Shown here: piece by piece, positions 11,410 to 12,305 of the stretch | Layout of the letters: the number at the start of each line of letters is the position of its first letter | Position numbering within the stretch: position 1 is the first letter of the stretch | Source of the DNA: Neptunicoccus sediminis | GTDB lineage: Bacteria; Pseudomonadota; Alphaproteobacteria; Rhodobacterales; Rhodobacteraceae | Direction: 5' to 3' | Length of the DNA stretch: 64,000 bases | NCBI RefSeq assembly: GCF_001719615.1 | Contig: NZ_MDVX01000003.1 | Coordinates: 248,001 to 312,000 of the forward strand | Made by a program: the position numbers and the translations under genes | The notes under the pieces: generated by a model | Databases searched by the model: none | Seen by the model: only the letters and a program-made list of their open reading frames with translations | What the model was told of the DNA's origin: nothing

Positions 11410-12102
11410 ATGCCCATGCCGGAGAGTTTTGAAATCGGGGCGCCGCCCATTGCTGTTGTGTTGAAGAAATCCGCGCGGGCGCGGCGGTTCTCGCTGCGTA
11501 TTTCCAATGTGGACGGGACGGTTAGCCTGACCATGCCAAAGCGGGCGGCCAAACGGGATGCGATGGCCTTTGCGACCGCGCAAGAGGGCTGGATGCGCAA
11601 GCATCTCGACAAACAGCCCGACCGGGTTATCCCTGCATTTGGTGGAACGATCCTGATCGACGGAATGCCTGTCGCGCTGACACAGGGGCAGGGGCGCACC
11701 GTTGAGTTTTCAGAGGGGACGCTGCTGGTTCCGGGAACCGAGGAGCAACTGGCCGGAAAGCTGCGGGCTTACCTAAAGACACTTGCGCGGGATCGTCTGT
11801 CGCAGGCCTCTGAACGCTATGCGGCGATGGTGGGGCGAAAGGTCTCTAGGATTACCCTGCGCGATACGCGGTCCCGTTGGGGGTCCTGCACCAGTGATGG
11901 TAATCTGATGTATTCATGGCGTCTGGTGATGGCGCCGCGCGGGGTTCAGGATTATGTGGCCGCCCATGAAGTGTGTCATTTGCTGGAGATGAACCACTCG
12001 GCGGCTTACTGGGCGCATGTGGCGGCGGTCTATCCGGACTATCAGGCGCAGAGGCAGTGGCTGCGGGATAACGGCGCGTTGTTGCATCGAATTGTTTTGT
12101 AA
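11410..12102 (+). CDS. YgjP/SprT-like M48-type zinc metallopeptidase (DUF45)
   Basis: A 230-residue cytosolic protein of the DUF45/YgjP family. The zinc site is clear: HEVCHLLEMNHSAAYW supplies the HExxH motif plus a downstream His. The preceding DTRSRWGSCTSDGNLMYSWRL is the family signature. The N-terminal half is basic and rich in beta strands (KKSARARRFSLRI). There is no signal peptide or membrane segment. The physiological substrate is not known. The gene is monocistronic as far as can be seen and is followed by the nested inverted-repeat region. Confidence 0.85.
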   Translation: MPMPESFEIGAPPIAVVLKKSARARRFSLRISNVDGTVSLTMPKRAAKRDAMAFATAQEGWMRKHLDKQPDRVIPAFGGTILIDGMPVALTQGQGRTVEFSEGTLLVPGTEEQLAGKLRAYLKTLARDRLSQASERYAAMVGRKVSRITLRDTRSRWGSCTSDGNLMYSWRLVMAPRGVQDYVAAHEVCHLLEMNHSAAYWAHVAAVYPDYQAQRQWLRDNGALLHRIVL

Positions 12103-12118
12103 GATGTTTTTCGTATGA

Positions 12119-12192
12119 CCCTGCAGATATGAAGCGTCATATATGAAGCTTCATATAAGACGCGTCGATTAAGACGCTTCATATTTGCAGGG
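12119..12192. repeat. Nested palindrome array (20-bp inverted arms with two inner palindromes)
   Basis: The outer arms 12119-12138 (CCCTGCAGATATGAAGCGTC) and 12173-12192 are inverted copies with 19 of 20 positions matching. Between them lie a perfect 18-bp palindrome, TATATGAAGCTTCATATA (12140-12157), and a perfect 8-bp palindrome, GACGCGTC (12159-12166). The units ATGAAGC and GACGC recur throughout. The block is much more AT-rich than the flanking genes. It sits between the metallopeptidase gene and the GntR gene. It could be a terminator-like hairpin, a multi-site operator or a mobile miniature repeat. Confidence 0.8.
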
Positions 12193-12277
12193 TGATCGGA
12201 ACAATTACCCGTTTCGCAGCCCGTATCGGATAAGCGCCGTTTCCACACGTGCGCCTGAATTTCCGCCTAATCTGACA

Positions 12278-12305
12278 TTGACAAAGCCCCAGATTGTGAT
12301 CACAA
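12278..12305 (+). promoter_or_regulatory. gntR promoter with palindromic operator TTGTGATCACAA
   Basis: A TTGACA box at 12278-12283 is followed after ten bases by a perfect 12-bp palindrome, TTGTGATCACAA (12294-12305), ending seven bases before the GntR start codon. The core TGTGATCACA recurs twice in the sucC promoter. TGT...ACA half-sites fit operators of GntR/FCD proteins, so autoregulation is likely. The -10 box is poor and overlaps the palindrome. Confidence 0.65.

What the first reader, a model, noticed from the sequence alone, without database searches (positions are those of the whole stretch)
12119..12192. Nested palindrome array between metallopeptidase and GntR genes
20-bp outer inverted arms (19/20 matching) enclose an 18-bp perfect palindrome and an 8-bp perfect palindrome, built from the recurring units ATGAAGC and GACGC in an AT-rich block. 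This is more ordered than a simple terminator. It could be a multi-site operator, a structured small RNA or a miniature mobile element.
Basis: seen in the sequence. Interest (0 to 1): 0.6.

Follow-up and report, generated by a model that had tools for sequence, protein, structure and literature searches.

The report
Dispersed palindrome-array repeat family, Amylibacter group
The nested palindrome is one of about thirty scattered copies of a modular DNA repeat, made of short palindromes in strict 14-base steps between fixed end pieces, which has kept the same places between genes across related marine bacteria while its number of units changed.

Summary
12115-12196 is one copy of a dispersed modular repeat: four 14-bp near-palindromic units (core GAMGCKTC) between inverted caps (ATSACCCTGCAAAT). 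The genome holds 31 such arrays of 1-7 units, which contain all 60 adjacent perfect unit pairs of the genome. It occurs in 5 of 33 species of the genus; other Rhodobacterales show only single chance matches. All arrays found in two sister species sit at places occupied in this genome (23 of 23 and 26 of 26), although fourfold sites are only 60% identical and unit number and type differ. No array lies in a called gene; 17 of 31 lie between convergent genes. No REP transposase, target duplication, phage or plasmid copy was found. The operator reading for the GntR gene fails: the array is missing in 5 of 7 species while TGTGATCACAAA before the gene is in all 7. Best reading: a BOX/BrickBuilt-like interspersed repeat, once spread by its ends, now immobile, its 14-bp units held by constraint or homogenisation at the ends of transcription units. 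The factor that reads it is unknown. New family of a known kind.

The parts
12115..12196 (.). whole element: left cap, four 14-bp units, right cap
   Evidence: boundaries from the type 1 end consensus ATSACCCTGC over 89 ends
12115..12128 (+). left cap, type 1 (ATGACCCTGCAGAT; consensus ATSACCCTGCAAAT)
12131..12138 (.). unit 1 core GAAGCGTC (mixed halves, not self-palindromic)
12145..12152 (.). unit 2 core GAAGCTTC (palindrome, centre of the 18-bp palindrome 12140-12157)
12159..12166 (.). unit 3 core GACGCGTC (8-bp palindrome)
12173..12180 (.). unit 4 core GACGCTTC (mixed halves, not self-palindromic)
12183..12196 (-). right cap, type 1, inverted copy of the left cap (ATTTGCAGGGTGAT)
11410..12102 (+). 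upstream neighbour: YgjP-like metallopeptidase gene; its stop codon ends 12 bases before the left cap
   Evidence: PF01863
12313..12963 (+). downstream neighbour: GntR/FCD regulator gene
   Evidence: PF00392, PF07729

Best explanation
The feature is one copy of a clade-specific family of small interspersed modular repeats. Each copy is a run of 1-7 units, each a 14-bp step with a palindromic or near-palindromic core (GAAGCTTC, GACGCGTC or the mixed forms), between end pieces of three recurrent types. SHOWN: dispersed copies, exact 14-bp phase, intergenic placement with a bias to convergent gene ends, full sharing of positions by the arrays of two sister species, change of unit number and type at fixed positions, and unit sequence far better kept than neutral sites. 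INFERRED: the family spread long ago as a non-autonomous element through its inverted ends; it no longer moves in this clade; units are gained and lost in whole 14-bp steps by slippage or unequal recombination; and the units are now held at the ends of transcription units by a sequence-specific process, most likely a dimeric DNA-binding protein that reads the 14-bp dyads in tandem (a nucleoid, topology or boundary role).
For: 31 arrays in the own genome; 5 of 33 congeners carry the family and the reversed control pattern has 0 in all 33; of 390 genomes of the order only three have more than one place. 23 of 23 G031 arrays and 26 of 26 G015 arrays lie at G000 array positions with both flanks homologous. 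Fourfold-site identity G000-G031 is 0.605, yet 108 of 129 unit slots (G000) and 66 of 72 (G031) are perfect. Window place: four units in G000, two in G015, same caps. 0 of 72 arrays inside a called gene, 41 convergent, 5 divergent; G000 alone 17 of 31 convergent against 2 of 15 array-free gaps, p 0.010. Sharp outer boundary of 89 type 1 ends.
Against: The DNA-binding protein is not identified, and constraint is not separated from copying between loci. Unit perfection is inflated because arrays were recognised by those bases. No target duplication longer than 2 bp in 17 of 17 arrays with type 1 caps at both ends, no transposase found, no clean empty site, so the mobile origin is inference. Four G000 arrays (L013, L019, L020, L032) have no partner in either sister, and G003 shares only two positions by both flanks, so positions do turn over on a longer scale. 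The convergent bias rests on a home-made gene caller and a background of 15 gaps.
Confidence: 0.5

Rival explanations
1. Selfish debris only: a miniature inverted-repeat element (possibly moved once by an IS5-like or other transposase) that collected in harmless places downstream of genes; its units stay alike through copying between loci, and it has no use to the cell.
For: Intergenic placement with convergent bias, which the BOX paper reads as a mark of tolerated parasitic elements (PMC3049150, passages); sharp inverted type 1 ends; lineage-wide unit flavour in G003, 18 of 24 arrays with only ACGCGT cores, as homogenisation would give; the G003 form GAGACCCTGCAAAT of the cap (L109) resembles the IS5-family end GAGACCTTTGCAAAA listed for ISNme1 in PMC4596501, a likeness by eye.
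Against: All 49 arrays of two sister species at old positions with near-perfect units although fourfold sites are 60% identical; closest paralogs only 86% alike, little sign of recent copying; no mover found.
Confidence: 0.33
2. RNA-level element: transcribed from either side, it forms a long hairpin that ends, protects or processes the 3' ends of messages.
For: 72 of 72 arrays fold better than shuffles (z below -2, median -6.3); the window copy has z -9.9 and -8.7 on its two strands; placement at 3' ends; the window copy lies 12 bases after a stop codon.
Against: Any tandem palindromes fold well; order of half-site types gives no more pairing than shuffles (105 of 500 as good); 27 of 93 3' flanks have their own terminator-like hairpin before the array, shuffles 2.0; no T run after the outer hairpin and no Rfam family.
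Confidence: 0.13
3. Local operator: the palindromes regulate the downstream GntR gene or the upstream metallopeptidase gene.
For: It lies between the two genes and is palindromic.
Against: Absent at this place in G031, G003, G004, G009 and G020, which keep both genes; TGTGATCACAAA before the GntR gene is kept in 7 of 7; 30 other copies lie beside unrelated genes.
Confidence: 0.02
4. Chance palindrome.
For: None found.
Against: 31 copies in the genome; the reversed control pattern has none.
Confidence: 0.01

Closest known systems
BrickBuilt, minisatellite-bearing MITE of Porphyromonas gingivalis (PMC4596501; abstract, section 5 and part 1 of section 7 read)
   Same: Variable number of short tandem units between end pieces with inverted termini; about 20-30 intergenic copies; narrow host range; some positions shared between species; no transposase inside.
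   Different: [quoted passage not shown] here units are 14-bp palindromes or near-palindromes, ends are short and mostly symmetrical, and no insertion-sequence parent was found.
BOX elements of Streptococcus pneumoniae (PMC3049150; passages)
   Same: Modular: end modules around a variable number of inner modules; folded; over-represented between convergent genes; slow turnover.
   Different: boxA/B/C are larger and unrelated in sequence; BOX has reported inverted ends with target duplications; here no target duplication longer than 2 bp was found.
REP / BIME with RAYT transposase (PMC2817692, PMC1525189: search listings only)
   Same: Interspersed palindromic units in alternating orientation, outside genes, at gene ends.
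   Different: No Y1 transposase over the cut-off in any of five carrier genomes.
CGTC-tagged REPs, common in alphaproteobacteria and without a known transposase (PMC3733652; passages and section 6)
   Same: Short palindromic repeats in alphaproteobacteria, no dedicated transposase; many cores here contain CGTC.
   Different: CGTC-REPs have an 8-9 bp stem, a 4-5 nt loop and a CCA-like tail at one end, mostly as dimers; the units here are 14-bp steps without such a loop or tail, in runs of 1-7.

Membership tests
Small interspersed modular repeats with variable unit number (BOX/BrickBuilt kind) | Many dispersed intergenic copies in one genome | tested here: met
   31 arrays, 0 of 72 arrays over all species inside a called gene
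Small interspersed modular repeats with variable unit number (BOX/BrickBuilt kind) | Recurrent end pieces around a variable number of inner units | tested here: met
   three end types, 138 of 144 ends assigned; 1-7 units
MITE | Terminal inverted repeats | tested here: met
   type 1 ends inverted and sharply bounded; but arrays with two unlike ends also exist
MITE | Target-site duplication | tested here: not met
   0 of 17 arrays with type 1 caps at both ends have a flanking match above the ever-present AT
MITE | Ends shared with an autonomous transposon in the same or a related genome | tested here: inconclusive
REP/REPIN | RAYT (Y1) transposase in the genome | tested here: not met
   PF01797 over the cut-off in 0 of 5 carrier genomes
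CGTC-REP | 8-9 bp stem, 4-5 nt loop, terminal CGTC tag and CCA-like tail | tested here: not met
   unit sequences compared by eye with section 6 of PMC3733652
Intrinsic terminator | G+C-rich hairpin followed directly by a T run | tested here: not met
   the outer hairpin is followed by GATCGGAA on the + strand; the scan finds only an inner 5-pair stem with a weak tail on each strand, 2 found against 0.5 in shuffles
Known RNA family (Rfam) | Match at the gathering score | tested here: not met
   best match 23.8 bits against a gathering score of 119
Operator of the GntR regulator | Kept with the gene across relatives | tested here: not met
   array in 2 of 7 species at this place
Array of binding sites for a trans-acting protein | Specific binding by a protein of the organism | not testable with these tools
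   needs pull-down or ChIP

The most novel reading that the evidence does not exclude
The arrays are the sites of an undescribed, clade-specific DNA-binding protein that marks or insulates the ends of transcription units at about 30 fixed chromosome places; the shift of most units from AAGCTT to ACGCGT in the G003 lineage would be the footprint of co-evolution with the protein, and the TTAAC-N6-TTAAC boxes that flank the arrays there would tie the system to CtrA-type cell-cycle control.
Probability: 0.2. Interest if true: 0.72.

Novelty: new member of a known kind. Interest (0 to 1): 0.42.

Why it matters
Small interspersed repeats are usually judged from one genome or from strains of one species. 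Here the arrays of two sister species, whose fourfold sites are about 60% identical to this genome's in the one pair measured, sit without exception at this genome's array positions, while the arrays change by whole units. That separates 'where' from 'how many' and makes a testable case that such repeats are kept for use, or are homogenised, rather than merely tolerated. The family also gives ready loci for typing this group of marine bacteria.

Tried and rejected
Chance palindrome: refuted by copy number. Known RNA: one Rfam match far below threshold (RF04130, 23.8 bits against 119). Phage or plasmid origin: no match in phages or plasmids; the cap pattern has 0 matches in viral contigs and the unit-pair pattern has one, which looks like a chance match in a different, protein-coding-like context by eye. 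RAYT-driven REPIN: no transposase over the cut-off. A specific multibranch fold, suggested by the A/C half-site order of the window copy: not above shuffles; in that test permuting whole units never changed the statistic, so only the shuffle of halves informs, and it is negative (105 of 500 as good). Coupling of half-site types within a unit (28 C-C seen, 21.6 expected) and across the unit border (35 seen, 27.2 expected) is weak. Target duplications: none; that script's measure always counts the AT present at both edges, so only matches above 2 would inform. Empty sites (window gap in G031; L020 and L032 in G015 and G031) are too diverged to give the insertion point. Inverted TTAA-box pairs in array-less congeners: an exact pattern found two places, one in each of two genomes, neither a known array by its letters, and it misses nearly all known arrays, so it is uninformative. 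A single TTAA box across the genus: no clear excess over the reversed control except perhaps in G003 (15 against 3), G004 (8 against 1) and G008 (7 against 0). Orthologous flanks measured by lenient global alignment gave median 0.75 against an unrelated-pair null of 0.72, which says little; the local-score version is used instead. Nothing in print was found on this family; searches: (an open-licence library only).

Full report
WHAT IS THERE. The underlying order is simpler and stricter. Four cores, GAAGCGTC, GAAGCTTC, GACGCGTC and GACGCTTC, start at 12131, 12145, 12159 and 12173, exactly 14 bp apart, and the run is bounded by ATGACCCTGCAGAT (12115-12128) and its inverted near-copy ATTTGCAGGGTGAT (12183-12196). 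Two such cores at 14-bp distance occur in the window only here, against 0.01 expected. Both strands fold far better than shuffles (z -9.9 and -8.7).

A DISPERSED FAMILY. The own genome gives 64 BLAST matches, counted over both strands. I fetched these places and read 31 arrays of 1-7 units. The 31 arrays contain 60 perfect adjacent unit pairs, the same number as the whole genome has, so the set is complete for arrays with at least two perfect neighbours. The reversed control pattern has none. In the genus, 5 of 33 genomes carry the pair pattern: G000 60, G015 47, G031 38, G003 16, G004 15. In a draw of 390 genomes of the order, 11 have a match: G000, G031 and G003 with many, and eight with a single place each, no more than the reversed control gives in nine genomes (G015 and G004 were not in that draw). 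Contig lengths identify G031 as Amylibacter cionae m18 and G015 as the Rhodobacteraceae metagenome genome P03SST1bin.12. By GntR-protein likeness the carriers are the nearest relatives of the window's genome among 12 compared (97-98% for G015 and G031, 87-88% for G003 and G004, against 76% or less for the seven non-carriers), although the tree does not settle whether they form one clade.

END PIECES. One search used 144 ends of 72 arrays. Type 1 (89 ends) is ATSACCCTGCAAATATGAAGCGTC with a sharp outer boundary. Type 2 (20 ends) is a longer conserved piece ending in TTAACATACTGCATATATGAAGCTTC. Type 3 (29 ends) is a TTAA box, about CTTAACAAANCCTTAATCATGAAGCTTC. Six ends fitted none. At orthologous loci the end type appears to be kept while the units change; I judged this by eye, not by a count. 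In G003 most array ends have the TTAA box, inverted at the two sides, with consensus cTTAaCaaa...TtAAcC next to GACGCGTC over 42 ends of 21 loci, and 18 of 24 arrays show only ACGCGT cores. The box has nearly the spacing of the CtrA consensus TTAA-N7-TTAAC quoted in PMC4046655 (passages); this is likeness of letters, not binding.

POSITIONS ARE FIXED, UNITS ARE NOT. After fetching the remaining G015 arrays, every array of G031 (23 of 23; their unit pairs add up to the 38 of that genome) and of G015 (26 of 26; their unit pairs add up to the 47 of that genome) has both flanks homologous to the flanks of a G000 array. 23 of 31 G000 arrays have a partner in G031, 26 of 31 in G015 and 27 of 31 in at least one; L013, L019, L020 and L032 have none. 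At the window's own place G015 has a two-unit copy with both caps, while G031, G003, G004, G009 and G020 have none. Over 17,790 aligned codons next to the arrays the G000-G031 identity at fourfold sites is 0.605. Neutral 8-mers would rarely survive that, yet 108 of 129 unit slots in G000, 66 of 72 in G031 and 48 of 54 in the 14 G015 arrays then at hand are perfect (inflated, because arrays were recognised by these bases). Flanks of 36 bp just outside the caps exceed the 95% level of unrelated pairs in 13 of 37 cases. So either the unit sequence is under constraint or copies are homogenised between loci. The closest paralogs are 86% alike from cap to cap, which speaks against very recent copying. 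Against strict fixity, G003 shares only L160/L030 and L165/L017 by both flanks, and L172/L034 by one.

PLACEMENT. By a simple gene caller of my own, none of 72 arrays is inside a gene; 41 lie between convergent, 26 between co-directional and 5 between divergent genes. For G000 alone it is 17, 11 and 3, against 2, 8 and 5 in 15 array-free gaps of at least 100 bp; Fisher p is 0.010 for convergent and 0.09 for divergent. In 27 of 93 3' flanks a terminator-like hairpin with T run lies between the stop codon and the array, shuffles 2.0. Arrays are therefore not the only terminator of such genes, and many are probably weakly transcribed (inference). The 20 neighbouring proteins scanned, of 62 listed, are mixed; no transposase was among them.

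HOW IT MOST LIKELY WORKS. Shown: dispersion, phase, placement, fixed positions, unit turnover, kept unit sequence. Inferred: an old spread through the inverted ends, loss of movement, and present retention because a sequence-specific process reads the 14-bp dyads at transcription-unit ends. A protein array is my first choice because the unit, not the overall fold, is what is kept: nested pairing of half-site types is not above shuffles. Topology control at convergent ends is a possible use; one array (L014) lies beside a GapR-like gene, and GapR is reported to sit on overtwisted DNA at the 3' ends of highly expressed genes (PMC8510090, start of abstract in a search listing). No experiment here shows it. 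The rival that it is homogenised selfish debris remains serious.

WHAT IT IS NOT. It is not the operator of the GntR gene: TGTGATCACAAA directly before the gene is in 7 of 7 species, the array in 2 of 7. It is not a RAYT-linked REP, nor a CGTC-REP by the published build (PMC3733652), nor a known RNA. Its architecture is closest to BrickBuilt (PMC4596501) and BOX (PMC3049150).

Noticed in passing
window 12294-12305: Palindrome TTGTGATCACAA just before the GntR/FCD gene; TGTGATCACAAA is kept in 7 of 7 species aligned and is the likely autoregulatory operator of that regulator.
   Followed up: partly
L111, L154-L173 (G003): Arrays in G003 are mostly flanked on both sides, inverted, by TTAAC-N6-TTAAC boxes that resemble the CtrA consensus.
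   Followed up: partly
L014:2213-2506: A GapR-like nucleoid protein gene ends next to a seven-unit array.
   Followed up: no
L174-L176, L178, L179, L182, L183 (G004) and L108, L109 (G003): Some arrays hold an odd 26-bp step (12 + 14), so a 12-bp unit variant exists in that lineage.
   Followed up: no
L010, L012, L033, L034 and other type 2 ends: Type 2 ends carry about 50 bp of further conserved sequence outside the units, much longer than type 1 ends.
   Followed up: partly
L188, L189 (G003): Two sub-threshold Y1-transposase-like matches in G003 only (20.2 and 15.7 bits, cut-off 23).
   Followed up: no
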